64,000 bases of DNA. Source: Clavelina lepadiformis (taxonomy: Eukaryota; Chordata; Ascidiacea; Aplousobranchia; Clavelinidae). Below the pieces are notes generated by a model, which had not been told where the DNA came from, ran no database searches, and worked only from the letters and a program-made list of their open reading frames with translations. A program made the translations under genes and the position numbers. The stretch covers positions 3,040,501 to 3,104,500 of the forward strand of contig NC_135247.1 of assembly GCF_947623445.1 (NCBI RefSeq), written 5' to 3'. Shown here piece by piece: positions 20,221 through 54,310 of the stretch (position 1 is the stretch's first letter; each line of letters opens with the position of its first letter).

Positions 20221-20281
20221 GTTGTCGTGGCTGAGTGGTTAAGGCGACAGACTTGAAATCTGTTGGGCTATGCCCGCGTAC
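20221..20281 (+). pseudogene. Truncated tRNA-Ser (UGA)
   Basis: The acceptor 5' strand, D arm (with CTGAG for CCGAG) and anticodon arm with loop CTTGAAA (UGA) are present. The sequence breaks after the variable arm and continues directly into the end of the tRNA-like element (GAGCCAACAA), so the T arm and acceptor 3' strand are missing. Confidence 0.8.
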
Positions 20282-20320
20282 GAGCCAACAATCGTTTGAT
20301 GACCATTTGACTGTCTAGGC

Positions 20321-20985
20321 CAGTGGTTCTCAACCGGGGGTCCGCGGACCCCCAAGGGTCCGCGAAACGTTTTCAGGGGGTCCGTGAGAACTTCGAAATT
20401 TGCAACATAAAGTACGAGTTTTTAAAAAGTTTTTGCTGTTTATCATTGCTGTTTGGAATAGGCTTGAACATTTGCTTAATTGCCTATTGTGATGGGACAA
20501 TATAAAAGCTTATTGAGATTTATCACCCGCGGGGAAGGCCTATTGTGATGCAATAGATTGCGGATTATACGAGAAGACAGCTGGATACAGTGATTTTAAG
20601 TTGCTGGAGATTGCACATAATCGATTTCTCAGTTTCTGCTCTCGTTCATATAAAATCGAAGTCACGTAACCAACTAAATGTTGAAGACGACATGCGACTA
20701 TCGATTTCGAAAACACAACCCCGTATTTCAAGACTTGTTTCTAATATGCAACAGCAAAACTCCCATTAAGTGTATTCGCTTTGAAATAAATAAAAATATC
20801 CGCATAGTTTGATGTTATTTTGATTGAATAGCGCAGTTGTGCACCAAGACTATTAAGTAAAACTAAGCAAAGAAACATTTAAGTGCAGTCTCAGAACCCT
20901 TAGTTTGCTTAAACTTCAGGGGTCCGCCAACTGCTTTGACAGCACCAAAAGGGGTCCGCCAAGATCAGAAGGTTGAGAACCACTG
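20321..20985. mobile_element. Non-autonomous hAT-type element
   Basis: Perfect 15-bp terminal inverted repeats (CAGTGGTTCTCAACC and its complement) bound 665 bp. The 8-bp target duplication GTCTAGGC is exact at 20313-20320 and 20986-20993. The left end holds the 18-bp palindrome GGGGGTCCGCGGACCCCC, and both subterminal regions carry GGGTCCGC-type sequence. The TIR is of the hAT/Charlie type. No transposase is encoded. It sits in the first minisatellite unit. Confidence 0.88.
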
Positions 20986-21196
20986 GTCTAGGCCACCAGC
21001 TGGCTAGACTCACGTAAATCCTGAGTATTTAGGAAGCTGCCGGAAGCTGTAAAAAAAGTTGCAAAAGTTGCAAAAACTTGCCCTACTAATCACCTATTCC
21101 TAATCCTAATCACTTACCTTATATAATATATATAGATATCTATATATAGATATAGTCATAAGTAAAACTAAAATTTCTGATTTTCTTCACGTTTAA

Positions 21197-22081: not shown

Positions 22082-22163
22082 GTTGTCGTGGCCGAGTGGT
22101 TAAGGCGACAGACTCGAAATCTGTTGGGCCCTGCCAGCGTAGGTTCGAATCCCGCCGACAACG
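22082..22163 (+). tRNA. tRNA-Ser (CGA), cluster A1
   Basis: 82 nt fold as a type II tRNA: acceptor GTTGTCG/CGACAAC with discriminator G, D arm GCCGAGTGGTTAAGGC, anticodon stem ACAGA/TCTGT around loop CTCGAAA, a 14-nt long variable arm, and T loop TTCGAAT. The T stem GTAGG/CCCGC has one A-C mismatch. A T4 terminator follows about 10 nt downstream. The layout matches animal tRNA-Ser-CGA. Confidence 0.92.
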
Positions 22164-22240
22164 CAGATGTTACTTTTGCAATTTCATATGGATATTCGGA
22201 AATGTGGTATTTTAACTATTTCATCTATGCATTAAGCACA

Positions 22241-22322
22241 GTTTTCGTGGCCGAGTGGTTAAGGCGACAGACTCGATATCTGTTGGGCCCTGCCCGCGTA
22301 GGTTCGAATCCCGCCGAAAACG
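22241..22322 (+). tRNA. tRNA-Ser (CGA), cluster A2, compensated acceptor
   Basis: The acceptor reads GTTTTCG/CGAAAAC, a compensated change of the fourth base pair. The anticodon loop is CTCGATA, with A37 changed to T beside the CGA anticodon, which may impair decoding. T stem is GTAGG/CCCGC. A T4 terminator is present. Confidence 0.85.
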
Positions 22323-22399
22323 CAGATATTACTTTTGCAATTTCATATGGATATTCGGAAATGTGTCATATTAACTATTTCATCTATGCATTAAGCACA

Positions 22400-22481
22400 G
22401 TTGTCGTGGCCGAGTGGTTAAGGCGACAGACTCGAAATCTGTTGGGCCCTGCCCGCGTAGGTTCGAATCCTGCCGACAACG
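22400..22481 (+). tRNA. tRNA-Ser (CGA), cluster A3, fully paired
   Basis: Standard acceptor and anticodon stems, with T stem GTAGG/CCTGC paired throughout (one T-G wobble). This is one of the best-folded copies in the array. A T4 terminator follows. Confidence 0.94.
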
Positions 22482-22558
22482 CCGATATTACTTTTACAAT
22501 TTCATATGGATATTCGGAAATGTGGTATTTTAACTATTTCATCTATGCATTTAGCACA

Positions 22559-22640
22559 GTTGTCGTGGCCGAGTGGTTAAGGCGACAGACTAGAAATCTG
22601 CTGGGCTCTGCCCGCTTAGGTTCGAATCCTGCCGACAACG
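22559..22640 (+). tRNA. tRNA-Ser (AGA), cluster A4
   Basis: Anticodon loop CTAGAAA gives AGA (read as IGA). The stem ACAGA/TCTGC has a terminal A-C mismatch, and T stem TTAGG/CCTGC a terminal T-C mismatch. The 3' flank is the block-end type, with the first T4 about 48 nt downstream. Confidence 0.87.
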
Positions 22641-22751
22641 CGGAATTGGAATCACGCTTCCATAAGTGATTTGCGAAAAGTGTGATTTTATCTATTTTCA
22701 TGGAAATACTAAAGCAATAAAGTCAAGATGCGCAGAAAGCACGGGGTGATC

Positions 22752-22829
22752 GGGACGGAACCCATAGCACAGTGGAAAAACTGGAGAACGGCGACAGACA
22801 AGCTGCAGGTTCAAACCAGCGAGCCGCAG
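22752..22829 (+). repeat. tRNA-like element with A and B boxes, copy 1
   Basis: TAGCACAGTGG matches the Pol III A box and GGTTCAAACC the B box, 32 nt apart, inside a roughly 78-bp sequence that does not fold as a normal tRNA. It reads as a tRNA-derived SINE head or tRNA relic between the AGA gene and the second minisatellite. Confidence 0.6.
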
Positions 22830-22866
22830 AGCGACGAGCCAACAACCGTTTGATGACCATTTGACT

Positions 22867-23006
22867 GTCTAGGCCACCAGCTGGCCAGACTGACGTCTAG
22901 GCCACCAGCTGGCTAGACTGACGTCTAGTTCACCAGCTGGCTAGACTGACGTCTAGTTCACCAGCTGGTTAGACTGACGTCTAGTTCACCAGCTGGCTAG
23001 ACTCAC
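22867..23006. repeat. Roughly 28-bp minisatellite (CCAGCTGG units), block 1
   Basis: Five units built on GTCTAGGCCACCAGCTGG plus CTAGACTGAC; later units read GTCTAGTTCACC. The palindrome CCAGCTGG is constant. Confidence 0.88.
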
Positions 23007-23189
23007 GTAAATCCTGAGTATTTAGGAAGCTGCCGGAAGCTGTAAAAAAAGTTGCAAAAGTTGCAAAAACTTGCCCTACTAATCACCTATTCCTAATCCT
23101 AATCACTTACCTTATATAATATATATAGATATCTATATATAGATATAGTAATAAGTAAAACTAAAATTTATGAATTTCTTCACGTTTAA

Positions 23190-23645
23190 GGGGTCACTTT
23201 CCAATAAAACGACAATTTTATGCCGGCAACACAGTGATTGTGACCGTGTTGCACTCAATGCGTCATATTAAAAAAAGTAAAAATTTTCCGGTCCAATGCG
23301 CATGTGCCGTCGATGTGGAGTAGTTCGTCGTTACTTTGACGACAGCTGGTTCCAGGTCTAGGCTAAGTTGTAAATTTTGTGTGGGTTTGAATTTTTGTTT
23401 TTTTGGAGTATTTGTCATAAATTGTTAAGCTAAAAACTTGTTGTAAAGTTTAGGCAATTGTTATAGAAAACTGAGTACATGGATTTTGTCCAAACTAAGA
23501 CGGTAGACAGACATAACCTAGGTCCTAGGTCTTGTTGCAAGCCAAAACTCAGGGTAGGTTTATGATGTAGTTTTGCGTTGGTAGCTTCTTGATTTAATGT
23601 ACTTTGCATTGAAAAGCCTATCTCTTTGAATTGGGACATGACCCC
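23190..23645. mobile_element. TTAA-flanked MITE, copy 2
   Basis: Same element as at 21197, but 456 bp: a 7-bp CCTAGGT duplication makes the 456-bp allele shared with the copies at 25257, 30031 and 34386. Confidence 0.75.
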
Positions 23646-23749
23646 TTAAGCAAATAACAGAAGTTTACTTTAGTACTTAAAATTTAGTTGAAACTAGCTT
23701 ATAGTTAATACACTACAGAGACGTAGGCGTAGCTAGGTCTCGAAATCAG

Positions 23750-23946
23750 CTTGATTTTCATCTAGACTACGCTAGCTTGATTTTCATCTAGACTACGCTT
23801 GCTTGATTTTCATCTAGACTACGCTAGCTTGATTTTCATCTAGACTACGCTAGCTTGATTTTCATCTAGACTACGCTAGCTTGATTTTCATCTAGACTAC
23901 CCTAGCTAGATTTTTATCTAAAATTCGCTAGCTACATTTTCATCTT
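23750..23946. repeat. 26-bp minisatellite, block 2
   Basis: About seven and a half units. The penultimate unit carries the variant TCTAAAATTCGCTAG, shared with blocks 3 and 5. Confidence 0.88.
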
Positions 23947-24055
23947 GTCAGATTTGAAAGTCAGGAGAAGGTTCCGGAAACACCGACATGGTGGAATCTA
24001 TCTAGTGATTCGAGAAAAGTGCCATTTTATTTATTTGCATTTCACATTAAGCACA

Positions 24056-24137
24056 GTTGTCGTGGCCGAGTGGTTAAGGCGACAGACTCGAAATCTGTTG
24101 GGCCCTGCCAGCGTAGGTTCGAATCCCGCCGACAACG
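24056..24137 (+). tRNA. tRNA-Ser (CGA), cluster B1
   Basis: Same sequence class as A1: variable arm ending CCAGC, T stem GTAGG/CCCGC, T4 terminator. It is the first gene after the block linker. Confidence 0.92.
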
Positions 24138-24214
24138 CAGATGTTACTTTTGCAATTTCATATGGATATTCGGAAATGTGGTATTTTAACTATTTCATCT
24201 ATGTATTAAGCACA

Positions 24215-24296
24215 GTTTTCGTGGCCGAGTGGTTAAGGCGACAGACTCGAAATCTGTTGGGCCCTGCCAGCGTAGGTTCGAATCCCGCCGACAACG
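24215..24296 (+). tRNA. tRNA-Ser (CGA), cluster B2, uncompensated acceptor
   Basis: The acceptor 5' strand is GTTTTCG but the 3' strand is still CGACAAC, leaving a T-C mismatch at the fourth pair. Loop CTCGAAA is normal. It looks like the uncompensated form of A2. Confidence 0.83.
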
Positions 24297-24373
24297 CAGA
24301 TGTTACTTTTGCAATTTCATATGGATATTCGGAAATGTGGTATTTTAACTATTTCATCTATGTATTAAGCACA

Positions 24374-24455
24374 GTTGTCGTGGCCGAGTGGTTAAGGCGA
24401 CAGACTCGAAATCTGTTGGGCCCTGCCAGCGTAGGTTCGAATCCCGCCGACAACG
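24374..24455 (+). tRNA. tRNA-Ser (CGA), cluster B3
   Basis: Normal acceptor GTTGTCG/CGACAAC, variable arm ending CCAGC, T stem GTAGG/CCCGC with the A-C mismatch, T4 terminator present. Confidence 0.92.
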
Positions 24456-24532
24456 CAGATGTTACTTTTGCAATTTCATATGGATATTCGGAAATGTATC
24501 ATTTTAACTATTTCATCTATGCATTAAGTACA

Positions 24533-24614
24533 GTTGTCGTGGCCGAGTGGTTAAGGCGACAGACTCGAAATCTGTTGGGCCCTGCCAGCGTAGGTTCGAG
24601 TCCTGCCGACAACG
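24533..24614 (+). tRNA. tRNA-Ser (CGA), cluster B4
   Basis: Paired T stem GTAGG/CCTGC with T loop TTCGAGT. The 5' flank reads AAGTACA instead of AAGCACA. T4 terminator present. Confidence 0.92.
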
Positions 24615-24691
24615 CCGATATTACTTTTACAATTTCATATGGATATTCGGAAATGTGGTATTTTAACTATTTCATCTATGCATTAAGCACA

Positions 24692-24773
24692 GTTGTCGTG
24701 GCCGAGTGGTTAAGGCGACAGACTAGAAATCTGCTGGGCTCTGCCCGCTTAGGTTCGAATCCTGCCGACAACG
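24692..24773 (+). tRNA. tRNA-Ser (AGA), cluster B5
   Basis: Same AGA form as A4, at the block-end position before the constant 3' flank, with the same terminal mismatches in the anticodon and T stems. Confidence 0.87.
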
Positions 24774-24884
24774 CGGAATTGGAATCACGCTTCCATAAGT
24801 GATTTGCGAAAAGTGTGATTTTATCTATTTGCATGGAAATACTAAAGTAATAAAGTCAAGATGCGCAAAAAGCACGGGGCGGGC

Positions 24885-24962
24885 GGGACGGAACCCATAG
24901 CACAGTGGAAAAACTGGAAAACGGCGACAGACAAGCTGCAGGTTCAAACCAGCGAGCCGCAG
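24885..24962 (+). repeat. tRNA-like element, copy 2
   Basis: A box TAGCACAGTGG and B box GGTTCAAACC are intact. The 5' flank is GC-richer (GGGCGGGCGGG) than in copy 1. Confidence 0.6.
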
Positions 24963-24999
24963 AGCGACGAGCCAACAACCGTTTGAGGACCATTTGACT

Positions 25000-25080
25000 G
25001 TCTAGGCCACCAGCTGGCCAAACTGACGTCTAGGCCACCAGCTGGCCAGACTGACGTCTAGGCCACCAGCTGGCCAGACT
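25000..25080. repeat. Roughly 28-bp minisatellite, block 2
   Basis: Three units with the CCAGCTGGCCAGACTG form; shorter than in block 1. Confidence 0.85.
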
Positions 25081-25256
25081 CACGTAAATCCTGAGTATTT
25101 AGGAAGCTGTAAAAAAAGTTGCAAAAGTTGAAAAAATTTGCCCTACTAATCACCTGTTCCTAATCCTAATCACTTACCTTATATAATATATATAGATATC
25201 TATATATAGATATAGTCATAAGTAAAACTAAAATTTCTGATTTTCTTCACGTTTAA

Positions 25257-25712
25257 GGGGTCACTTTCCAATAAAACGACAATTTTATGCCGGCAACACA
25301 GTGATTGTGACCGTGTTGCACTCAATGCGTCATATTAAAAAAAGTAAAAATTTTCCGGTCCAATGCGCATGTGACGTCGATGTGGAGTAGTTCGTCGTTA
25401 CTTTGACGACAGCTGGTTCCAGGTCTAGGCTAAGTTGTAAATTTTGTGTGGGTTTGAATTTTTGTTTTTTTGGAGTATTTGTCATAAATTGTTAAGCTAA
25501 AAACTTGTTGTAAAGTTTAGGCAATTGTTATAGAAAACTGAGTACATGGATTTTGTCCAAACTAAGACGGTAGACAGACATAACCTAGGTCCTAGGTCTT
25601 GTTGCAAGCCAAAATTCAGGGTAGGTTTATGATGTAGTTTTGCGTTGGTAGCTTCTTGATTTAATGTACTTTGCATTGAAAAGCCTATCTCTTTGAATTG
25701 GGACATGACCCC
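25257..25712. mobile_element. TTAA-flanked MITE, copy 3
   Basis: The 456-bp allele between intact TTAA sites at 25253-25256 and 25713-25716. Termini as in copy 1. Confidence 0.75.
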
Positions 25713-25816
25713 TTAAGCAAATAACAGAAGTTTACTTTAGTACTTAAAATTTAGTTGAAACTAGCTTATAGTTAATACACTACAGAGACGTAGGCGTAGC
25801 TAGGTCTCGAAATCAG

Positions 25817-26013
25817 CTTGATTTTCATCTAGACTACGCTAGCTTGATTTTCATCTAGACTACGCTTGCTTGATTTTCATCTAGACTACGCTAGCTTGAT
25901 TTTCATCTAGACTACGCTAGCTTGATTTTCATCTAGACTACGCTAGCTTGATTTTCATCTAGACCACCCTAGCTAGATTTTTATCTAAAATTCGCTAGCT
26001 ACATTTTCATCTT
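25817..26013. repeat. 26-bp minisatellite, block 3
   Basis: About seven and a half units in the same order of variants as block 2, supporting common origin of these two blocks. Confidence 0.88.
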
Positions 26014-26124
26014 GTCAGATTTGAAAGTCAGGAGAAGGTTCCGGAAACACCGACATGGTGGAATCTATCTATAGTGATTCGAGAAAAGTGCCATTTTATT
26101 TATTTGCATTTCACATTAAGCACA

Positions 26125-26206
26125 GTTGTCGTGGCCGAGTGGTTAAGGCGACAAACTTGAAATCTGTTGGGCCCTGCCAGCGTAGGTTCGAATCCCGCCG
26201 ACAACG
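26125..26206 (+). tRNA. tRNA-Ser (UGA), cluster C1
   Basis: Loop CTTGAAA gives UGA. The anticodon stem ACAAA/TCTGT has an internal A-C mismatch not seen in the UGA copies at 30896 and 35173, so this copy may be weakened. T4 terminator present. Confidence 0.82.
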
Positions 26207-26283
26207 CAGATGTTACTTTTGCAATTTCATATGGATATTCGGAAATGTGGTATTTAAACTATTTCATCTATGTATTAAGCACA

Positions 26284-26365
26284 GTTGTCGTGGCCGAGTG
26301 GTTAAGGCGACAGACTCGAAATCTGTTGGGCCCTGCCAGTGTAGGTTCGAATCCCGCCGACAACG
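26284..26365 (+). tRNA. tRNA-Ser (CGA), cluster C2
   Basis: Variable arm ending CCAGT, T stem GTAGG/CCCGC, normal acceptor and anticodon arms, T4 terminator. Confidence 0.91.
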
Positions 26366-26442
26366 CAGATATTACTTTTGCAATTTCATATGGATATTCG
26401 GAAATGTGGTATTTTAACTATTTCATCTATGCATTAAGCACA

Positions 26443-26524
26443 GTTGTCGTGGCCGAGTGGTTAAGGCGACAGACTCGAAATCTGTTGGGCCCTGCCCGCG
26501 TAGGTTCGAATCCCGCCGACAACG
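26443..26524 (+). tRNA. tRNA-Ser (CGA), cluster C3
   Basis: Variable arm ending CCCGC, T stem GTAGG/CCCGC, T4 terminator; the most frequent CGA form in blocks 3 and 5. Confidence 0.92.
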
Positions 26525-26601
26525 CAGATATTACTTTTGCAATTTCATATGGATATTCGGAAATGTGTGATTTTAACTATTTCATCTATGCATTAAGCAC
26601 A

Positions 26602-26683
26602 GTTGTCGTGGCCGAGTGGTTAAGGCGACAGACTCGAAATCTGTTGGGCCCTGCCCGCGTAGGTTCGAATCCCGCCGACAACG
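26602..26683 (+). tRNA. tRNA-Ser (CGA), cluster C4, proximal terminator lost
   Basis: Body identical to C3, but the spacer reads ACTTTAGC, so the proximal T4 is reduced to T3. The next T4 lies at 26730-26733, predicting a longer 3' trailer. Confidence 0.91.
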
Positions 26684-26760
26684 CAGATATTACTTTAGCA
26701 ATTTCACATGGATATTCGGAAATGTGTCATTTTAACTATTTCATCTATGCATTAAGCACA

Positions 26761-26842
26761 GTCGTCGTGGCCGAGTGGTTAAGGCGACAGACTCGAAATC
26801 TGTTGGGCCCTGCCCGCGTAGGTTCGAATCCCGCCGACAACG
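26761..26842 (+). tRNA. tRNA-Ser (CGA), cluster C5
   Basis: The acceptor 5' strand is GTCGTCG, giving a C-A mismatch at the third pair. The rest matches C3. T4 terminator present. Confidence 0.85.
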
Positions 26843-26919
26843 CAGATATTACTTTTGCAATTTCACATGGATATTCGGAAATGTTTCATTTTAACTATTT
26901 CATCTATGCATTAAGCACA

Positions 26920-27001
26920 GTTGTCGTGGCCGAGTGGTTAAGGCGACAGACTCGAAATCTGTTGGGCCCTGCCCGCGTAGGTTCGAGTCCTGCCGACAAC
27001 G
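26920..27001 (+). tRNA. tRNA-Ser (CGA), cluster C6
   Basis: Paired T stem GTAGG/CCTGC with T loop TTCGAGT, as in B4. It is the penultimate gene of the block, where CCTGC copies tend to sit. Confidence 0.93.
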
Positions 27002-27078
27002 CCGATATTACTTTTACAATTTCATATGGATATTCGGAAATGTGGTATTTTAACTACTTCATCTATGCATTTAGCACA

Positions 27079-27160
27079 GTTGTCGTGGCCGAGTGGTTAA
27101 GGCGACAGACTAGAAATCTGCTGCGCTCTGCCCGCTTAGGTTCGAATCCTGCCGACAACG
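27079..27160 (+). tRNA. tRNA-Ser (AGA), cluster C7
   Basis: AGA form with an extra G-to-C change in the variable arm (CTGCGCTC for CTGGGCTC), shared only with the last gene of block 5. Block-end position. Confidence 0.84.
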
Positions 27161-27271
27161 CGGAATTGGAATCACGCTTCCATAAGTGATTTGCGAAAAG
27201 TGTGATTTTATCTATTTGCATGGAAATACTAAAGCAATAAAGTCAAGATGCGCAAAAAGCACGGGGTGGGT

Positions 27272-27349
27272 GGGACGGAACCCATAGCACAGTGGAAAAA
27301 CTGGGAAACGGCGACAGACAAGCTGCAGGTTCAAACCAGCGAGCCGCAG
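27272..27349 (+). repeat. tRNA-like element, copy 3
   Basis: A and B boxes intact. The sequence between them differs by one base from copy 2. Confidence 0.6.
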
Positions 27350-27386
27350 AGCGACGAGCCAACAACCGTTTGATGACCATTTGACT

Positions 27387-27640
27387 GTCTAGGCCACCAG
27401 CTGGCTAGACTGACTGTCTAGGCCACCAGCTGGCTAGACAGACTGTCTAGGCCACCAGCTGGCTAGACAGACTGTCTAGGCCACCAGCTGGCTAGACTGA
27501 CTGTCTAGGCCACCAGCTGGCTAGACTGACGTCTAGGCCACCAGCTGGCTTGACTGACGGCTAGGCCACCAGCTGGCTAGACTGACGGCTAGTTCACCAG
27601 CTGGCTAGACTGACGGCTAGTTCACCAGCCGGCTAGACTC
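27387..27640. repeat. Roughly 28-bp minisatellite, block 3 (longest)
   Basis: Nine to ten units, the longest stretch of this repeat. Units change from GACTGTCTAGG to GACGTCTAGG to GACGGCTAG from left to right, so variants are grouped. Confidence 0.9.
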
Positions 27641-27742
27641 ACGTAAATCCTGAGTATTTAGGAAGCTGCCGGAAGCTGTAAAAAAAGTTGCAAAAGTTGC
27701 AAAAACTTGCCCTACTAATCACCTGTTCCTAATCCTAATCAC

Positions 27743-28400
27743 TAGGGCAACCAGTTTTTTGACCTAAAAAGTTTAAATTTTGACCTTAAAATTTGCAAAT
27801 TTTGACCTCATTTTGACCTAAAAAGTTTATATTTTGACCTTATTTTGACCTAAAAAGTTTACAATTTTACATTATTTTGACCTAAAACGTTTAAATTTTG
27901 ACCTTATTTTGAAAAACGCTATACTGATAGTCTCTACACTGTCTACAGCAACTTTCTAATCTAAAGCTGCATTTAAAAATGACAAAATTCTTTTCTAGTG
28001 TTGACTTTTTTTTCGTTTCTGCGTATTAAGATTGACAACTTGCAGTTTCAAATGCAATGCTGTCACATCGTGACGTCACCAAACGCGCTGAAAATCCTTC
28101 CCTCTCTTTGTGTCTTTGGTTCTAAGTAAAATTTGCGGGACTGGAATTGTTTGCGGTACAAGAAAAGAGAAAAACGGAAGAATAATATTACAAAATTACA
28201 AGTTTAATAGATTTTGACCTAAAAAAAAGACCTAACGAAACAATTTGACCGTATTTTGACCTAACGTAACATTTTGACTTTATCTGACCTAATAACTTCT
28301 ATACCACACGTCGTACAAAGCTGAAATTTGTTTTGTGCTTGTTTCATAGCATTCTGAGCAGGTAAAAAAAAATTGACCATATTGACTTTTGGTTGCCCTA
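27743..28400. mobile_element. Non-autonomous hAT-type element with empty sibling sites
   Basis: 658 bp with inverted ends TAGGGCAACC and GGTTGCCCTA and an exact 8-bp target duplication CTAATCAC (27735-27742 and 28401-28408). The other blocks carry the uninterrupted site CCTAATCACTTACC, so the insertion postdates block duplication. Internal TTTTGACCTAAAAAGTTTA-type subterminal repeats recur near both ends. No transposase is seen. Confidence 0.9.
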
Positions 28401-28491
28401 CTAATCACTTACCTTATATAATATATATAGATATCTATATATAGATATAGTCATAAGTAAAACTAAAATTTCTGATTTTCTTCACGTTTAA

Positions 28492-28940
28492 GGGGTCACT
28501 TTCCAATAAAACGACAATTTTATGCCGGCAACACAGTGATTGTGACCGTGTTGCACTCAATGCGTCATATTAAAAAAAGTAAAAATTTTCCGGTCCAATG
28601 CGCATGTGACGTCGATGTGGAGTAGTTCGTCGTTACTTTGACGACAGCTGGTTCCAGGTCTAGGCTAAGTTGTAAATTTTGTGTGGGTTTGAATTTTTGT
28701 TTTTTTGGAGTATTTGTCATAAATTGTTAAGCTAAAAACTTGTTGTAAAGTTTAGGCAATTGTTATAGAAAACTGAGTAAATGGATTTTGTCCAAACTAA
28801 GACGGTAGACAGACATAACCTAGGTCTTGTTGCAAGCCAAAATTCAGGGTAGGTTTATGATGTAGTTTTGCGTTGGTAGCTTCTTGATTTAATGTACTTT
28901 GCATTGAAAAGCCTATCTCTTTGAATTGGGACATGACCCC
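28492..28940. mobile_element. TTAA-flanked MITE, copy 4
   Basis: The 449-bp allele, as in copies 1 and 7, bounded by TTAA on both sides. Confidence 0.75.
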
Positions 28941-29044
28941 TTAAGCAAATAACAGAAGTTTACTTTAGTACTTAAAATTTAGTTGAAACTAGCTTATAGT
29001 TAATACACTACAGAGACGTAGGCGTAGCTAGGTCTCGAAATCAG

Positions 29045-29215
29045 TTTGATTTTCATCTAGACTACGCTAGCTTGATTTTCATCTAGACTACGCTAGCTTG
29101 ATTTTCATCTAGACTAAGCTAGCTTGATTTTCATCTAGACTACGCTAGCTTGATTTTCATCTAGACTACGCTAGCTAGATTTTTATCTAGACTACGCTAG
29201 CTACATTTTCATCTT
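29045..29215. repeat. 26-bp minisatellite, block 4
   Basis: About six and a half units. The first unit starts TTTGATTTTC and one unit carries GACTAAGCTAG. Confidence 0.85.
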
Positions 29216-29324
29216 GTCAGATTTGAAAGTCAGGAGAAGGTTCCGGAAACACCGACATGATGGAATCTATCTAGTGATTCGAGAAAAGTGCCATATTATT
29301 TATTTGCATTTCACATTAAGCACA

Positions 29325-29406
29325 GTTGTCGTGGCCGAGTGGTTAAGGCGACAGACTCGAAATCTGTTGGGCCCTGCCAGCATAGGTTCGAATCCCGCCG
29401 ACAACG
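29325..29406 (+). tRNA. tRNA-Ser (CGA), cluster D1
   Basis: Variable arm CCAGC followed by T stem ATAGG/CCCGC, so both the first and third T-stem pairs are mismatched. Acceptor and anticodon arms are normal. T4 terminator present. Confidence 0.86.
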
Positions 29407-29483
29407 CAGATGTTACTTTTGCAATTTCATATGGATATTCGGAAATGTGGTATTTTAACTATTTCATCTATGTATTATGCACA

Positions 29484-29565
29484 GTTTTCGTGGCCGAGTG
29501 GTTAAGGCGACAGACTCGAAATCTGTTGGGCTCTGCCCGCTTAGGTTCGAATCCTGCCGACAACG
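29484..29565 (+). tRNA. tRNA-Ser (CGA), cluster D2, CGA/AGA recombinant
   Basis: The 5' half is B2-like (GTTTTCG acceptor, loop CTCGAAA, TCTGTT). The 3' half is AGA-like (GGGCTCTGCCCGCTTAGG, CCTGC). A crossover inside the gene therefore produced a CGA gene in the block-end position. The fourth acceptor pair is mismatched. Confidence 0.82.
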
Positions 29566-29676
29566 CGGAATTGGAATCACGCTTCCATAAGTGATTTGCG
29601 AAAAGTGTGATTTTATCTATTTGCATGGAAATACTAAAGTAATAAAGTCAAGATGCGCAAAAAGCACGGGGCGGGC

Positions 29677-29754
29677 GGGACGGAACCCATAGCACAGTGG
29701 AAAAACTGGAAAACGGCGACAGACAAGCTGCAGGTTCAAACCAGCGAGCCGCAG
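29677..29754 (+). repeat. tRNA-like element, copy 4
   Basis: Same as copy 2, including the GGGCGGGCGGG upstream motif; A and B boxes intact. Confidence 0.6.
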
Positions 29755-29791
29755 AGCGACGAGCCAACAACCGTTTGATGACCATTTGACT

Positions 29792-29848
29792 GTCTAGGCC
29801 ACCAGCTGGCCAGACTGACGTCTAGGCCACAAGCTGGCCAGACTGACG
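29792..29848. repeat. Roughly 28-bp minisatellite, block 4
   Basis: Only two units, the second with CACAAGCTGG in place of CACCAGCTGG. Confidence 0.82.
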
Positions 29849-30030
29849 TAAATCCTGAGTATTTAGGAAGCTGCCGGAAGCTGTAAAAAAAGTTGCAAAA
29901 GTTGCAAAAATTTGCCCTACTAATCACCTGTTCCTAATCCTAATCACTTACCTTATATAATATATATAGATATCTATATATAGATATAGTCATAAGTAAA
30001 ACTAAAATTTCTGATTTTCTTCACGTTTAA

Positions 30031-30486
30031 GGGGTCACTTTCCAATAAAACGACAATTTTATGCCGGCAACACAGTGATTGTGACCGTGTTGCACTCAAT
30101 GCGTCATATTAAAAAAAGTAAAAATTTTCCGGTCCAATGCGCATGTGACGTCGATGTGGAGTAGTTCGTCGTTACTTTGACGACAGCTGGTTCCAGGTCT
30201 AGGCTAAGTTGTAAATTTTGTGTGGGTTTGAATTTTTGTTTTTTTGGAGTATTTGTCATAAATTGTTAAGCTAAAAACTTGTTGTAAAGTTTAGGCAATT
30301 GTTATAGAAAACTGAGTACATGGATTTTGTCCAAACTAAGACGGTAGACAGACATAACCTAGGTCCTAGGTCTTGTTGCAAGCCAAAATTCAGGGTAGGT
30401 TTATGATGTAGTTTTGCGTTGGTAGCTTCTTGATTTAATGTACTTTGCATTGAAAAGCCTATCTCTTTGAATTGGGACATGACCCC
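30031..30486. mobile_element. TTAA-flanked MITE, copy 5
   Basis: The 456-bp allele between intact TTAA sites; nearly identical to copy 3. Confidence 0.75.
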
Positions 30487-30590
30487 TTAAGCAAATAACA
30501 GAAGTTTACTTTAGTACTTAAAATTTAGTTGAAACTAGCTTATAGTTAATACACTACAGAGACGTAGGCGTAGCTAGGTCTCGAAATCAG

Positions 30591-30787
30591 CTTGATTTTC
30601 ATCTAGACTACGCTAGCTTGATTTTCATCTAGACTACGCTTGCTTGATTTTCATCTAGACTACGCTAGCTTGATTTTCATCTAGACTACGCTAGCTTGAT
30701 TTTCATCTAGACTACGCTAGCTTGATTTTCATCTAGACCACCCTAGCTAGATTTTTTCTAAAATTCGCTAGCTACATTTTCATCTTG
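30591..30787. repeat. 26-bp minisatellite, block 5
   Basis: Variant order as in blocks 2 and 3, with a short deletion in the penultimate unit (GATTTTTTCTAAAATTCG). Confidence 0.87.
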
Positions 30788-30895
30788 TCAGATTTGAAAG
30801 TCAGGAGAAGGTTCCGGAAACACCGACATGGTGGAATCTATCTAGTGATTCGAGAAAAGTGCCATTTTATTTATTTGCATTTCACATTAAGCACA

Positions 30896-30977
30896 GTTGT
30901 CGTGGCCGAGTGGTTAAGGCGACAGACTTGAAATCTGTTGGGCCCTGCCAGCGTAGGTTCGAATCCCGCCGACAACG
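30896..30977 (+). tRNA. tRNA-Ser (UGA), cluster E1
   Basis: Loop CTTGAAA with an intact ACAGA/TCTGT stem. Variable arm CCAGC, T stem GTAGG/CCCGC, T4 terminator. First gene of the largest cluster. Confidence 0.91.
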
Positions 30978-31054
30978 CAGATGTTACTTTTGCAATTTCA
31001 TATGGATATTCGGAAATGTGGTATTTAAACTATTTCATCTATGTATTAAGCACA

Positions 31055-31136
31055 GTTGTCGTGGCCGAGTGGTTAAGGCGACAGACTCGAAAGCTGTTGG
31101 GCCCTGCCAGTGTAGGTTCGAATCCCGCCGACAACG
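31055..31136 (+). tRNA. tRNA-Ser (CGA), cluster E2
   Basis: The anticodon stem 3' strand is GCTGT, giving an A-G mismatch next to the loop. Variable arm CCAGT, T stem GTAGG/CCCGC. Probably weakened. Confidence 0.83.
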
Positions 31137-31213
31137 CAGATGTTACTTTTGCAATTTCATATGGATATTCAGAAATGTGGTATTTTAACTATTTCATCTA
31201 TGCATTAAGCATA

Positions 31214-31295
31214 GTTGTCGTGGCCGAGTGGTTAAGGCGACAGACTCGAAATCTGTTGGGCCCTGCCCGCGTAGGTTCGAATCCCGCCGACAACG
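31214..31295 (+). tRNA. tRNA-Ser (CGA), cluster E3
   Basis: Standard CCCGC/GTAGG form. Its 5' flank has the marker AAGCATA, which recurs at E7, E11, E13 and G3. T4 terminator present. Confidence 0.92.
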
Positions 31296-31372
31296 CAGAT
31301 ATTACTTTTGCAATTTCATATGGATATTCGGAAATGTGTGATTTTAACTATTTCATCTATGCATTAAGCACA

Positions 31373-31454
31373 GTTGTCGTGGCCGAGTGGTTAAGGCGAC
31401 AGACTCGAAATCTGTTGGGCCCTGCCCGCGCAGGTTCGAATCCCGCCGACAACG
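31373..31454 (+). tRNA. tRNA-Ser (CGA), cluster E4, T-stem C50 form
   Basis: T stem GCAGG/CCCGC: the second pair is C-G instead of the T-G wobble, while the A-C mismatch remains. The proximal T4 is lost (ACTTTAGC). Confidence 0.9.
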
Positions 31455-31531
31455 CAGATATTACTTTAGCAATTTCACATGGATATTCGGAAATGTGTGA
31501 TTTTAACTATTTCATCTATGCATTAAGCACA

Positions 31532-31613
31532 GTTGTCGTGGCCGAGTGGTTAAGGCGACAGACTCGAAATCTGTTGGGCCCTGCCCGCGCAGGTTCGAAT
31601 CCCGCCGACAACG
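31532..31613 (+). tRNA. tRNA-Ser (CGA), cluster E5
   Basis: Same body as E4. The downstream spacer reads TTCCTTTGG, so there is no proximal T4. Confidence 0.9.
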
Positions 31614-31690
31614 CAGATATTCCTTTGGCAATTTCACATGGATATTCGGAAATGTGTCATTTTAACTATTTCATCTATGCATTAAGCACA

Positions 31691-31772
31691 GTTGTCGTGG
31701 CCGAGTGGTTAAGGCGACAGACTCGAAATCTGTTGGGCCCTGCCCGCGCAGGTTCGAATCCCGCCGACAACG
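31691..31772 (+). tRNA. tRNA-Ser (CGA), cluster E6
   Basis: Same body as E4, with spacer ACTTTAGC (proximal T4 lost). Confidence 0.9.
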
Positions 31773-31849
31773 CAGATATTACTTTAGCAATTTCACATGG
31801 ATATTCGGAAATGTGTCATTTTAACTATTTCATCTATGCATTAAGCATA

Positions 31850-31931
31850 GTTGTCGTGGCCGAGTGGTTAAGGCGACAGACTCGAAATCTGTTGGGCCCT
31901 GCCCGCGTAGGTTCGAATCCCGCCGACAACG
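31850..31931 (+). tRNA. tRNA-Ser (CGA), cluster E7
   Basis: GTAGG/CCCGC form, with the AAGCATA flank marker and an intact T4. It lies exactly four units (636 bp) after E3. Confidence 0.92.
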
Positions 31932-32008
31932 CAGATATTACTTTTGCAATTTCATATGGATATTCGGAAATGTGGTATTTTAACTATTTCATCTATGCAT
32001 TAAGCACA

Positions 32009-32090
32009 GTTGTCGTGGCCGAGTGGTTAAGGCGACAGACTCGAAATCTGTTGGGCCCTGCCCGCGCAGGTTCGAATCCCGCCGACAACG
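32009..32090 (+). tRNA. tRNA-Ser (CGA), cluster E8
   Basis: GCAGG/CCCGC form with the TTCCTTTGG spacer, matching E5. No proximal T4. Confidence 0.9.
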
Positions 32091-32167
32091 CAGATATTCC
32101 TTTGGCAATTTCACATGGATATTCGGAAATGTGTCATTTTAACTATTTCATCTATGCATTAAGCACA

Positions 32168-32249
32168 GTTGTCGTGGCCGAGTGGTTAAGGCGACAGACT
32201 CGAAATCTGTTGGGCCCTGCCCGCGTAGGTTCGAATCCCGCCGACAACG
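32168..32249 (+). tRNA. tRNA-Ser (CGA), cluster E9
   Basis: GTAGG/CCCGC form. Downstream ACTTTAGC removes the proximal T4. Confidence 0.91.
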
Positions 32250-32326
32250 CAGATATTACTTTAGCAATTTCACATGGATATTCGGAAATGTTTCATTTTA
32301 ACTATTTCATCTATGCATTAAGCACA

Positions 32327-32408
32327 GTTGTCGTGGCCGAGTGGTTAAGGCGACAGACTCGAAATCTGTTGGGCCCTGCCCGCGCAGGTTCGAATCCCGC
32401 CGACAACG
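32327..32408 (+). tRNA. tRNA-Ser (CGA), cluster E10
   Basis: GCAGG/CCCGC form with spacer ACTTTAGC. E10 and its spacer match E6, four units earlier. Confidence 0.9.
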
Positions 32409-32485
32409 CAGATATTACTTTAGCAATTTCACATGGATATTCGGAAATGTGTCATTTTAACTATTTCATCTATGCATTAAGCATA

Positions 32486-32567
32486 GTTGTCGTGGCCGAG
32501 TGGTTAAGGCGACAGACTCGAAATCTGTTGGGCCCTGCCCGCGTAGGTTCGAATCCCGCCGACAACG
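32486..32567 (+). tRNA. tRNA-Ser (CGA), cluster E11
   Basis: GTAGG/CCCGC form with the AAGCATA marker, four units after E7. T4 intact. Confidence 0.92.
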
Positions 32568-32644
32568 CAGATATTACTTTTGCAATTTCATATGGATATT
32601 CGGAAATGTGGTATTTTAACTATTTCATCTATGCATTAAGCACA

Positions 32645-32726
32645 GTTGTCGTGGCCGAGTGGTTAAGGCGACAGACTCGAAATCTGTTGGGCCCTGCCAG
32701 TGTAGGTTCGAATCCCGCCGACAACG
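32645..32726 (+). tRNA. tRNA-Ser (CGA), cluster E12
   Basis: Variable arm CCAGT as in C2 and E2, with normal anticodon stem and T4. The following spacer has ATGTATGC for CTATGC. Confidence 0.91.
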
Positions 32727-32803
32727 CAGATGTTACTTTTGCAATTTCATATGGATATTCGGAAATGTGGTATTTTAACTATTTCATGTATGCATTAAGC
32801 ATA

Positions 32804-32885
32804 GTTGTCGTGGCCGAGTGGTTAAGGCGACAGACTCGAAATCTGTTGGGCCCTGCCCGCGTAGGTTCGAATCCCGCCGACAACG
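32804..32885 (+). tRNA. tRNA-Ser (CGA), cluster E13
   Basis: GTAGG/CCCGC form with AAGCATA marker and intact T4. It repeats the E3-type unit. Confidence 0.92.
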
Positions 32886-32962
32886 CAGATATTACTTTTG
32901 CAATTTCATATGGATATTCGGAAATGTGTGATTTTAACTATTTCATCTATGCATTAAGCACA

Positions 32963-33044
32963 GTTGTCGTGGCCGAGTGGTTAAGGCGACAGACTCGAAA
33001 TCTGTTGGGCCCTTCCCGCGCAGGTTCGAATTCCGCCGACAACG
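32963..33044 (+). tRNA. tRNA-Ser (CGA), cluster E14
   Basis: The variable arm has CCCTTCCCGC, and the T stem pairs GCAGG with TCCGC (G-T wobble at the loop-closing pair plus the A-C mismatch). Proximal T4 lost. Confidence 0.84.
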
Positions 33045-33121
33045 CAGATATTACTTTAGCAATTTCACATGGATATTCGGAAATGTGTCATTTTAACTAT
33101 TTCATCTATGCATTAAGCACA

Positions 33122-33203
33122 GTTGTCGTGGCCGAGTGGTTAAGGCGACAGACTCGAAATCTGTTGGGCCCTGCCCGTGTAGGTTCGAATCCCGTCGACA
33201 ACG
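33122..33203 (+). tRNA. tRNA-Ser (CGA), cluster E15
   Basis: Variable arm CCCGT; T stem GTAGG/CCCGT with a G-T pair at the base. The spacer reads ACATTTGC, so the proximal T4 is lost. Confidence 0.85.
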
Positions 33204-33280
33204 CAGATATTACATTTGCAATTTCATATGGATATTCGGAAATGTTTCATTTTAACTATTTCATCTATGCATTAAGCACA

Positions 33281-33362
33281 GTTGTCGTGGCCGAGTGGTT
33301 AAGGCGACAGACTCGAAATCTGTTGGGCCCTGCCCGCGTAGGTTCGATTCCTGCCGACAACG
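33281..33362 (+). tRNA. tRNA-Ser (CGA), cluster E16
   Basis: Paired T stem GTAGG/CCTGC but T loop TTCGATT, a B-box change. Penultimate position, as for C6. T4 intact. Confidence 0.89.
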
Positions 33363-33439
33363 CCGATATTACTTTTACAATTTCATATGGATATTCGGAA
33401 ATGTTTCATTTTAACTACTTCATCTATGCATTTAGCACA

Positions 33440-33521
33440 GTTGTCGTGGCCGAGTGGTTAAGGCGACAGACTCGAAATCTGCTGCGCTCTGCCCGCTTAG
33501 GTTCGAATCCTGCCGACAACG
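33440..33521 (+). tRNA. tRNA-Ser (CGA) on an AGA backbone, cluster E17
   Basis: All diagnostic positions are AGA-type (TCTGCTGCGCTCTGCCCGC, TTAGG, CCTGC) and the closest relative is C7 (AGA). The loop is CTCGAAA, so one base converts AGA to CGA. Block-end position. Confidence 0.84.
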
Positions 33522-33632
33522 CGGAATTGGAATCACGCTTCCATAAGTGATTTGCGAAAAGTGTGATTTTATCTATTTGCATGGAAATACTAAAGCAATA
33601 AAATCAAGATGCGCAAAAAGCACGGGGTGGGT

Positions 33633-33710
33633 GGGACGGAACCCATAGCACAGTGGAAAAACTGGAAAACGGCGACAGACAAGCTGCAGGTTCAAACCAG
33701 CGAGCCGCAG
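33633..33710 (+). repeat. tRNA-like element, copy 5
   Basis: A and B boxes intact, GGGTGGGTGGG upstream form as in copy 3. Confidence 0.6.
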
Positions 33711-33747
33711 AGCGACGAGCCAACAACCGTTTGATGACCATTTGACT

Positions 33748-33820
33748 GTCTAGGCCACCAGCTGGCTAGACTGACTGTCTAGGCCACCAGCTGGCTAGAC
33801 TGACTGTCTAGGCCACCAGC
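33748..33820. repeat. Roughly 28-bp minisatellite, block 5, broken by a tRNA segment
   Basis: Two and a half units that stop at GGCCACCAGC and continue directly as TTAAGCACA plus a tRNA gene. This junction marks an unequal recombination. Confidence 0.85.
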
Positions 33821-33829
33821 TTAAGCACA

Positions 33830-33911
33830 GTTGTCGTGGCCGAGTGGTTAAGGCGACAGACTAGAAATCTGCTGGGCTCTGCCCGCTTAGGTTCGAATCC
33901 TGCCGACAACG
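33830..33911 (+). tRNA. tRNA-Ser (AGA), isolated copy F1
   Basis: Standard AGA form, alone between two copies of the block tail. Only nine bases of normal 5' flank remain before the minisatellite junction, so its upstream context differs from every other copy. Confidence 0.86.
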
Positions 33912-34022
33912 CGGAATTGGAATCACGCTTCCATAAGTGATTTGCGAAAAGTGTGATTTTATCTATTTGCATGGAAATACTAAAGTAATAAAGTCAAGAT
34001 GCGCAAAAAGCACGGGGCGGGC

Positions 34023-34100
34023 GGGACGGAACCCATAGCACAGTGGAAAAACTGGAAAACGGCGACAGACAAGCTGCAGGTTCAAACCAGCGAGCCGCAG
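34023..34100 (+). repeat. tRNA-like element, copy 6
   Basis: GGGCGGGCGGG upstream form as in copies 2 and 4; A and B boxes intact. Belongs to the duplicated tail after F1. Confidence 0.6.
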
Positions 34101-34137
34101 AGCGACGAGCCAACAACCGTTTGATGACCATTTGACT

Positions 34138-34200
34138 GTCTAGGCCACCAGCTGGCCAGACTGACGTCTAGGCCACCAGCTGGCCAGACTGACCAGACTC
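34138..34200. repeat. Roughly 28-bp minisatellite after F1
   Basis: Two units plus a partial one ending GACTGACCAGACTC. Confidence 0.82.
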
Positions 34201-34385
34201 ACGTAAATCCTGAGTATTTAGGAAGCTGCCGGAAGCTGTAAAAAAAGTTGCAAAAGTTGCAAAAATTTGCCCTACTAATCACCTGTTCCTAATCCTAATC
34301 ACTTACCTTATATAATATATATAGATATCTATATATAGATATAGTCATAAGTAAAACTAAAATTTCTGATTTTCTTCACGTTTAA

Positions 34386-34841
34386 GGGGTCACTACCCAA
34401 TAAAACGACAATTTTATGCCGGCAACACAGTGATTGTGACCGTGTTGCACTCAATGCGTCATATTAAAAAAAGTAAAAATTTTCCGGTCCAATGCGCATG
34501 TGCCGTCGATGTGGAGTAGTTCGTCGTTACTTTGACGACAGCTGGTTCCAGGTCTAGGCTAAGTTGTAAATTTTGTGTGGGTTTGAATTTTTGTTTTTTT
34601 GGAGTATTTGTCATAAATTGTTAAGCTAAAAACTTGTTGTAAAGTTTAGGCAATTGTTATAGAAAACTGAGTACATGGATTTTGTCCAAACTAAGACGGT
34701 AGACAGACATAACCTAGGTCCTAGGTCTTGTTGCAAGCCAAAATTCAGGGTAGGTTTATGATGTAGTTTTGCGTTGGTAGCTTCTTGATTTAATGTACTT
34801 TGCATTGAAAAGCCTATCTCTTTGAATTGGGACATGACCCC
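34386..34841. mobile_element. TTAA-flanked MITE, copy 6
   Basis: The 456-bp allele. The left end reads CACTACCC, and the right flank has lost one A, so only the left TTAA is intact. Confidence 0.73.
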
Positions 34842-34944
34842 TTAGCAAATAACAGAAGTTTACTTTAGTACTTAAAATTTAGTTGAAACTAGCTTATAGT
34901 TAATACACTACACAGACGTAGGCGTAGCTAGGTCTCGAAATCAG

Positions 34945-35063
34945 CTTGATTTTCATCTAGACTACGCTAGCTTGATTTTCATCTAGACTACGCTAGCTTG
35001 ATTTTCATCTAGACTACGCTAGCTAGATTTTCATCTAGACTACGCTAGCTACATTTTCATCTT
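34945..35063. repeat. 26-bp minisatellite, block 6
   Basis: Four and a half units; the shortest complete stretch of this repeat. Confidence 0.85.
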
Positions 35064-35172
35064 GTCAGATTTGAAAGTCAGAAGAAGATTCCGGAAACAC
35101 CGACATGGTGGAATCTATCTAGTGATTCGAGAAAAGTGGCATTTTATCTATTTGCATTTCACATTAAGCACA

Positions 35173-35254
35173 GTTGTCGTGGCCGAGTGGTTAAGGCGAC
35201 AGACTTGAAATCTGTTAGGCCCTGCCCGCGTAGGTTCGAATCCTGCCGACAACG
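35173..35254 (+). tRNA. tRNA-Ser (UGA), cluster G1, fully paired
   Basis: Loop CTTGAAA, intact anticodon stem, T stem GTAGG/CCTGC. The best-folded UGA copy. Variable arm begins TAGGCC. T4 terminator present. Confidence 0.93.
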
Positions 35255-35331
35255 CCGATATTACTTTTGCAATTTGATATGGATATTCGAAAAAGTGCGA
35301 TTTTATTTATTTCATATATGCATTAAGCACA

Positions 35332-35413
35332 GTTGTCGTGGCCGAGTGGTTAAGGCGACAGACTCGAAATCTGTTGGGCCCTGCCAGCGTAGGTTCGAAT
35401 CCTGCCGACAACG
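35332..35413 (+). tRNA. tRNA-Ser (CGA), cluster G2, fully paired
   Basis: Variable arm CCAGC, T stem GTAGG/CCTGC, T loop TTCGAAT. The spacer before it is more diverged than elsewhere (GATATTCGAAAAAG). Confidence 0.94.
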
Positions 35414-35490
35414 CAGATGTTACTTTTGCAATTTCATATGGATATTCGGAAATGTGCCATTCTAACTATTTCATCTATGCATTAAGCATA

Positions 35491-35572
35491 GTTGTCGTGG
35501 CCGAGTGGTTAAGGCGACAGACTCGAAATCTGTTGGGCCCTGCCCGCGTAGGTTCGAATCCCGCCGACAACG
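35491..35572 (+). tRNA. tRNA-Ser (CGA), cluster G3
   Basis: GTAGG/CCCGC form with the AAGCATA flank marker; T4 intact. Confidence 0.92.
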
Positions 35573-35649
35573 CAGATATTACTTTTGCAATTTCATATGG
35601 ATATTCGGAAATGTGGTATTTTAACTATTTCATCTATGCATTAAGCACA

Positions 35650-35731
35650 GTTGTCGTGGCCGAGTGGTTAAGGCGACAGTCTAGAAATCTGCTGGGCTCT
35701 GCCCGCTTAGGTTCGAATCCTGCCGACAACG
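35650..35731 (+). tRNA. tRNA-Ser (AGA), cluster G4
   Basis: Anticodon stem ACAGT/TCTGC around CTAGAAA has two mismatches, including the loop-closing pair. The most damaged AGA copy; block-end position. Confidence 0.8.
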
Positions 35732-35846
35732 CGGAATTGGAATCACGCTTCCATAAGTGATTTGCGAAAAGTGCGATTTTATCTATTTGCATGGAAGTAT
35801 TAAAGCAATAAAGTCAAGATGCGCAGAAAGCATAGGGTGGGTGAGA

Positions 35847-50694: not shown

Positions 50695-54310
<3,616 letters not shown>

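What the first reader, a model, noticed from the sequence alone, without database searches (positions are those of the whole stretch)
22082..35731. Forty tRNA-Ser genes with three isoacceptors in one nested tandem array
The sequence shows 40 full-length type II tRNA-Ser genes on one strand, at an exact 159-bp period within clusters of 1-17. Anticodons are CGA (32), AGA (5) and UGA (3), so all UCN serine decoders are together. The dominance of CGA, which reads the UCG codon, is unexpected in an AT-rich genome. It argues for amplification by recombination, or for a use other than bulk decoding.
Basis: partly seen in the sequence, partly recalled or inferred. Interest (0 to 1): 0.85.

Follow-up and report, generated by a model that had tools for sequence, protein, structure and literature searches.

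The report
Amplified tRNA-Ser gene array, sea squirt
In this sea squirt genome a serine tRNA gene has been copied hundreds of times in nested tandem blocks on many chromosomes, with its codon-reading letter changed in many copies, while a small ordinary set of serine tRNA genes sits elsewhere; the block in this window is one partly worn branch.

Summary
In detail: 40 full-length type II tRNA-Ser genes (CGA 32, AGA 5, UGA 3; exact 159-bp spacing within seven clusters) plus one truncated copy. The array is one of many: exact patterns find 857 UCN-type places genome-wide, dispersed genes included.

The interpretation changes. Outside the arrays the genome holds ordinary serine genes: three AGA and one CGA gene, three UGA and three GCU pattern matches; five of these ten were read. 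All 40 window copies, whatever their anticodon, lie 2-6 changes from a dispersed AGA gene and 18-23 from the dispersed CGA and UGA genes, base 34 excluded. This is one AGA-type family with anticodon shifts, so anticodon counts here do not measure codon demand. Only 6 of 40 copies have every tested stem pair; a chromosome-7 array has 30 of 41.

Best reading: birth-and-death amplification by unequal exchange; Pol III-competent but largely redundant. An egg-supply role, as suggested for zebrafish repeats, is the main open rival. tRNA clustering is already reported in tunicates.

The parts
20221..20293 (+). truncated tRNA-Ser(UGA) relic, 41st copy
   Evidence: Rfam 30.8 bits; 3' part lost
20321..20986 (.). 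inserted element with inverted ends (CAGTGGTTCTCAACC), flanked by TCTAGGC on both sides; looks hAT-like (label recalled)
   Evidence: read from the sequence
22082..22641 (+). cluster 1: 4 tRNA-Ser genes (CGA, CGA, CGA, AGA)
24056..24774 (+). cluster 2: 5 tRNA-Ser genes (4 CGA, AGA)
26125..27161 (+). cluster 3: 7 tRNA-Ser genes (UGA, 5 CGA, AGA)
29325..29566 (+). cluster 4: 2 tRNA-Ser genes (both CGA)
30896..33522 (+). cluster 5: 17 tRNA-Ser genes (UGA, 16 CGA; the last is an AGA-type body with CGA)
33830..33912 (+). cluster 6: one tRNA-Ser(AGA) gene in a 390-bp repeat
35173..35732 (+). cluster 7: 4 tRNA-Ser genes (UGA, CGA, CGA, AGA)
22642..24055 (.). linker between clusters 1 and 2: 28-bp and 26-bp tandem repeats and a segment bounded by TTAAGGGGTCA and its inverse; relatives of it separate the other clusters
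   Evidence: best matches 92.3-94.8% on C2, C6, C7
36979..37452 (.). 8-bp satellite ACTAGAGC, 59 copies, beyond the last linker

Best explanation
The window holds one branch of a genome-wide tRNA-Ser family of AGA type. A 159-bp unit (gene plus spacer) was copied head to tail, and blocks of such units plus a linker of about 1.4 kb were copied again (shown by the repeat structure). Unequal exchange and gene conversion change copy number and move variants between copies (inferred). Changes at base 34 turned AGA bodies into CGA and UGA (inferred from closeness). Blocks spread to at least seven of the nine large contigs by an unknown route. Most copies keep the internal Pol III promoter boxes and a T run, so transcription is plausible but not shown. 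Ordinary serine genes outside the arrays can do everyday decoding, so array copies are largely redundant (inferred): some arrays stay homogeneous and well paired, others, this one included, gather stem mismatches.
For: Nested structure and cluster sizes. Four pairs of identical non-adjacent units in the 17-gene cluster. Linkers alike within the window and on C2, C6, C7. All 40 window copies, and all 41 C7, 215 C6 and 81 C2 copies compared, are nearest the dispersed AGA gene. Neighbouring anticodons differ by base 34 alone in two pairs. Dispersed well-paired AGA, CGA and UGA genes score 64.3-67.5 bits. Mispaired stems in 34 of 40 window and 190 of 218 C6 copies but only 11 of 41 C7 copies. A box identical in 40 of 40; TTTT begins within 47 nt of the 3' end in 40 of 40.
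Against: No expression data. Gene bodies vary less than spacers in the window (diversity ratio 0.44-0.47), on C6 (0.70-0.74) and among C7 CGA units (0.53-0.63), which could mean that the copies are under selection; on C2 the ratio is above 1. The intact T-arm tail (485) outnumbers the mismatched one (208) genome-wide. CpG sites are not decaying. The direction AGA to CGA/UGA, and the completeness of the dispersed set, are not proven.
Confidence: 0.6

Rival explanations
1. Egg supply: the arrays are a second serine tRNA gene set, transcribed strongly in oocytes to stock the egg, while the dispersed genes serve somatic cells.
For: Two-set layout (arrays plus few well-paired dispersed genes) is like zebrafish, where tRNAs taken to be maternal come from highly repetitive regions and later ones from single or few isolated genes (PMC11417395, passages). 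Promoter boxes and T runs kept. CpG not depleted: observed/expected 1.02 in the array, 0.57 and 0.84 in the flanks. C7 array homogeneous and mostly well paired.
Against: No expression data. Most window copies carry a stem mismatch, and the commonest body does not fold to a cloverleaf by minimum energy.
Confidence: 0.2
2. Silenced satellite: the array is inert repeat DNA, switched off by chromatin, as reported for clustered tRNA genes of Arabidopsis.
For: Stem mismatches in 34 of 40 copies. Arabidopsis clusters were reported silenced (PMC10701932, passages).
Against: No excess of CpG transitions in any of four arrays and no CpG depletion; C7 array well kept.
Confidence: 0.1
3. The arrays are needed for bulk decoding of UCN codons.
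For: Hundreds of copies; 485 intact T-arm tails.
Against: Ordinary AGA, CGA and UGA genes exist outside the arrays; CGA share differs widely between arrays; UCG is 25 of 99 UCN codons in a small, impure sample.
Confidence: 0.05
4. Chromatin boundary: the array acts as an insulator, as proposed for a human tRNA tandem repeat.
For: Analogy only (PMC4041453, abstract).
Against: Nothing here tests it.
Confidence: 0.03
5. Assembly artefact.
For: None found; exact copy number in long arrays may still be off.
Against: Private insertions and 1-6% divergence between linkers; 117-fold HiFi, QV 67.4.
Confidence: 0.02

Closest known systems
tRNA gene clusters of other tunicates (PMC5006418, passages)
   Same: tandem tRNA genes: about 90% of tDNA in clusters in Ciona savignyi, about 40% in C. 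intestinalis and Botryllus schlosseri
   Different: the passages seen give no nested serine array or anticodon shift; Didemnum vexillum has almost no clusters
large tRNA clusters of Nematostella and some fishes (PMC2888827, passages)
   Same: clusters of fifty or more tRNA genes, arisen many times independently
   Different: mostly mixed clusters there (Nematostella, zebrafish); here one serine body type, with other tRNAs seen only in the C1 array
zebrafish repeat-encoded maternal tRNA genes (PMC11417395, passages)
   Same: repeated set beside isolated genes for the same amino acid
   Different: expression is measured there, unknown here
Arabidopsis Ser-Tyr-Tyr array, 27 units (PMC10701932, passages)
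   Same: tandem units that include tRNA-Ser
   Different: three genes of two kinds per unit, one locus, reported silenced; here many loci and no sign of CpG decay
Entamoeba tRNA arrays (PMC2652664, passages and abstract)
   Same: tandem tRNA units with short tandem repeats between genes
   Different: almost all tRNA genes arrayed there and a telomere role proposed; here ordinary serine genes lie outside the arrays and two chromosome ends read are TTAGGG

Membership tests
cytosolic tRNA-Ser gene | tRNA fold with long variable arm and serine UCN anticodon | tested here: met
   41 Rfam and ARAGORN calls, 40 full length
cytosolic tRNA-Ser gene | acceptor, anticodon and T stems fully paired | tested here: not met
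   6 of 40 in the window fully paired (3 of these with all four variable-arm pairs too); C7 30 of 41, C2 27 of 107 matches, C6 28 of 218
cytosolic tRNA-Ser gene | internal A and B boxes and a T run | tested here: met
   A box identical in 40 of 40, B box GGTTCGANTCC in 39 of 40 (consensus recalled), TTTT within 47 nt in 40 of 40
cytosolic tRNA-Ser gene | transcribed and charged | not testable with these tools
   no RNA data held
tandem tRNA cluster | neighbouring tRNA genes within 1000 nt (definition of PMC2888827) | tested here: met
   159 bp within clusters (definition)
oocyte-type (maternal) tRNA array | expressed in oocytes, replaced by other genes in soma | not testable with these tools
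   no expression data
Entamoeba-type arrayed genome | almost all tRNA genes in arrays | tested here: not met
   AGA, CGA and UGA serine genes outside arrays; other isotypes not surveyed
tRNA-derived SINE | dispersed retroposed copies with a 3' tail and target duplications | tested here: inconclusive
   window copies sit in a regular head-to-tail array with constant spacer; target duplications were not searched for

The most novel reading that the evidence does not exclude
Clavelina keeps a second serine tRNA system: hundreds of AGA-type bodies with CGA, UGA and AGA anticodons, expressed only in the germ line or egg, so that the same codons are read by different tRNA bodies in egg and soma, the arrays being kept alike by exchange within and between chromosomes.
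Probability: 0.13. Interest if true: 0.75.

Novelty: new member of a known kind. Interest (0 to 1): 0.45.

Why it matters
It shows that counting anticodons in an array can mislead: the CGA genes here are re-lettered AGA-type genes, while a CGA gene of the ordinary type stands elsewhere. Gene counts of this sort are often used as a stand-in for tRNA supply. The same genome offers homogeneous, intermediate and decaying arrays of one family beside ordinary genes, so birth-and-death, anticodon shift and a possible egg-versus-soma division of labour can be tested in a chordate with a chromosome-level assembly.

Tried and rejected
Codon demand as the cause of CGA excess: only a small test was possible. 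Ten open frames of 150 codons or more in fetched DNA (2413 codons, some frames transposon-like or partly non-coding) gave TCT 34, TCC 11, TCA 29, TCG 25. Too poor to lean on. A random codon sample was asked for and not granted.

Protein-coding reading: an 870-codon frame runs through the 17-gene cluster at 30938-33550. It exists because 159 is 3 x 53; other arrays have steps of 156-158 bp, so it is rejected as a gene.

Methylation decay: no excess of CpG transitions in window, C6, C7 or C2. Telomere replacement: the two chromosome ends that could be read are TTAGGG. Naming the species by COX1: no match; the name rests on contig lengths against the published table. Selection by diversity: mixed, C2 goes the other way, and on C7 the ratio is 1.08 when all anticodons are pooled. 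Minimum-energy folding is a weak guide for tRNA and is used only as support. In one search the acceptor pairs were counted one base out of register; one search replaces that count. In one search the CGA and UGA genes outside the arrays were set out of register, so its distances for them are wrong; one search replaces them.
Full report
What is there. ARAGORN and Rfam agree on 41 tRNA-Ser genes on the + strand of the window. Forty are full length, at 22082-35732, in clusters of 4, 5, 7, 2, 17, 1 and 4, exactly 159 bp apart within a cluster; anticodons are CGA 32, AGA 5, UGA 3. The 41st, at 20221, has lost its 3' part. Between clusters lie linkers of about 0.3 to 2.2 kb; the long ones carry 28-bp and 26-bp repeats and a segment bounded by TTAAGGGGTCA and its inverse. 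Long linker alignments within the window are 94-99% identical. A 59-copy 8-bp satellite follows the last linker.

Where it is. The window is contig C8:3040501-3104500 of a 209.06-Mb genome in 95 contigs. Contig lengths returned (C1 28.78, C2 26.53, C3 25.73, C4 25.07, C6 20.77, C7 20.45, C8 19.51, C9 15.73 Mb) match the chromosome table of Clavelina lepadiformis kaClaLepa1 to about 0.01 Mb (28.79, 26.54, 25.74, 25.07, 20.77, 20.45, 19.51, 15.73; PMC10884593, passages). The published totals, 210.1 Mb in 102 scaffolds, differ slightly. The species name is an inference from lengths. That assembly used 117-fold HiFi reads, QV 67.4.

The family in the genome. Exact patterns from A box to anticodon stem count CGA 449, UGA 206 and AGA 202 places; reversed patterns give 0. 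These 857 include the genes outside arrays and miss diverged copies. Places seen lie on C1, C2, C3, C4, C6, C7 and C8; lists were cut at 100 rows, so C5 and C9 are not excluded. Three further arrays were scanned, in fetched stretches of 40, 60 and 60 kb. C7: 41 genes, mostly in 2309-bp blocks of UGA-CGA-CGA-AGA, 30 of 41 with all tested stem pairs. C6: 218 matches, 210 CGA, in inverted blocks, 28 of 218 fully paired. C2: 107 matches, 25 of them misphased, 27 of 107 fully paired. The window: 6 of 40. Family copies of 30.6-59.7 bits lie 39-108 kb from the ends of C4, C7 and C8, and others lie 42 kb from the end of C1. The right ends of C1 and C7 are TTAGGG; the stretches asked for at the left ends of C4 and C8 read N. 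A 4-kb piece of the C1 array has 157-158-bp steps and also holds a tRNA-Arg(TCT) and what I read as an intron-bearing tRNA-Leu(CAA). A Lys-Leu-Leu array of about 1180-bp period lies within C9:4.936-5.171 Mb.

The ordinary set. Patterns that exclude the array's anticodon stem, or ask for an unbroken T stem, uncovered other serine genes. AGA: C1:7752319, C8:16195071 and C8:16196856, each the only tRNA in the 600-1000 bases read; the two on C8 are 1.7 kb apart and look like duplicates. UGA pattern matches: C3:21784660, 21912779 and 21914290; CGA: C7:478421. GCU pattern matches: three on C7. One UGA and the CGA were read; both have all tested stems paired, score 64.5 and 67.5 bits and fold to a cloverleaf. 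The other two UGA and the three GCU places are pattern matches only. Two further UGA matches (C4:6605318 and 6605476, 158 bp apart) look like array members and are not counted. The searches were exact patterns, so this set may be incomplete.

The deciding comparison. With base 34 left out, all 40 window copies are 2-6 changes from the AGA gene of C1:7752319 and 18-23 from the CGA and UGA genes outside the arrays. All 41 C7, 215 C6 and 81 C2 copies with a CGA, UGA or AGA anticodon are likewise nearest the AGA gene (3 C6 and 26 C2 matches with other triplets were left out). Window genes 24056 (CGA) and 30896 (UGA) differ at base 34 alone, and so do 33440 (CGA) and 27079 (AGA). The array is one AGA-type family whose anticodon letter changed. 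The direction, from AGA outward, is an inference.

Are the copies sound? All 40 score above the Rfam cut-off, at 47.2-64.3 bits, against 64.3-67.5 for the five genes read outside arrays. The A box is identical in all 40, the B box conforms in 39 (consensus recalled), and TTTT begins within 47 nt in all 40. But 34 of 40 have a mispair in the acceptor, anticodon or T stem. The commonest body (8 of 40) has one T-stem mismatch and does not fold as a cloverleaf by minimum energy, while its one-base variant 22400 does; the array AGA body does not and the AGA gene outside does. Genome-wide the intact T-arm tail is found 485 times, the mismatched one 208 times. Diversity is lower in gene bodies than in spacers here (ratio 0.44-0.47), on C6 (0.70-0.74) and among CGA units of C7 (0.53-0.63), but not on C2 (1.18-1.58 among CGA units, 2.91 pooled) nor on C7 pooled (1.08). 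This is mixed evidence for selection. CpG sites show no excess of transitions, and CpG observed/expected is 1.02 in the array against 0.57 and 0.84 in the flanks, which speaks against long germline methylation.

How it most likely works. Shown: nested repeats, the range of copy number, four pairs of identical non-adjacent units, linkers shared across chromosomes (best matches 90.6-97.5%), and well-paired genes outside the arrays. Inferred: unequal exchange and conversion as the motor, anticodon shift by point change, transfer between chromosomes, Pol III competence, redundancy. The main open rival is an egg supply, on the zebrafish pattern (PMC11417395, passages); amphibian oocyte-type 5S genes are a further parallel (PMC3565088, passages), and Xenopus oocyte tRNA arrays are recalled only.

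Against what is known. Tandem tRNA clusters arose many times in eukaryotes (PMC2888827, passages) and are reported in tunicates, with 90% of tDNA clustered in Ciona savignyi (PMC5006418, passages). Anticodon shift in tRNA families is described (PMC7884595, start of abstract in a search listing only). Searches for Clavelina with tRNA gene and nuclear genome (2 papers) and for tunicate tRNA terms (11 papers, 10 listed) showed no title or abstract on this array; only open-licence papers are held. I file it as a new member of a known kind.

Noticed in passing
G000:C9:4936235-5171852 (L001-L008, L035-L038): A second amplified tRNA family: Lys(TTT)-Leu(TAG)-Leu(AAG) units of about 1180 bp, seen at many places across about 235 kb.
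   Followed up: partly
window 20321-20986: Element with inverted ends and a short flanking duplication, inserted in the first linker next to the truncated tRNA; looks hAT-like (label recalled).
   Followed up: no
window 21193-21649 and relatives in other linkers: Segment bounded by TTAAGGGGTCA and its inverse, inside the linkers; may be a small transposable element carried along with the array.
   Followed up: no
window 27740-28300: One linker alone carries an AT-rich insert with TTTTGACCT-type repeats.
   Followed up: no
window 30938-33550: 870-codon open frame through the 17-gene cluster, a by-product of the 159-bp period; likely to be misannotated as a protein.
   Followed up: yes
window 22740-22840 and the same place in other linkers: Downstream of the clusters the linker holds a stretch with A-box-like and B-box-like motifs (TAGCACAGTGG, GGTTCAAACC), perhaps a worn tRNA-derived piece; no Rfam match.
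   Followed up: no
window 53371-59781: Several HSP70 exons, apparently more than one gene or gene piece in a row; a rhodopsin-type receptor exon lies at 44116-45150.
   Followed up: no
C6 array (L023-L028): Tail and head of tRNA blocks alternate in large inverted repeats; some linkers there hold long open frames that look transposon-derived by eye.
   Followed up: no
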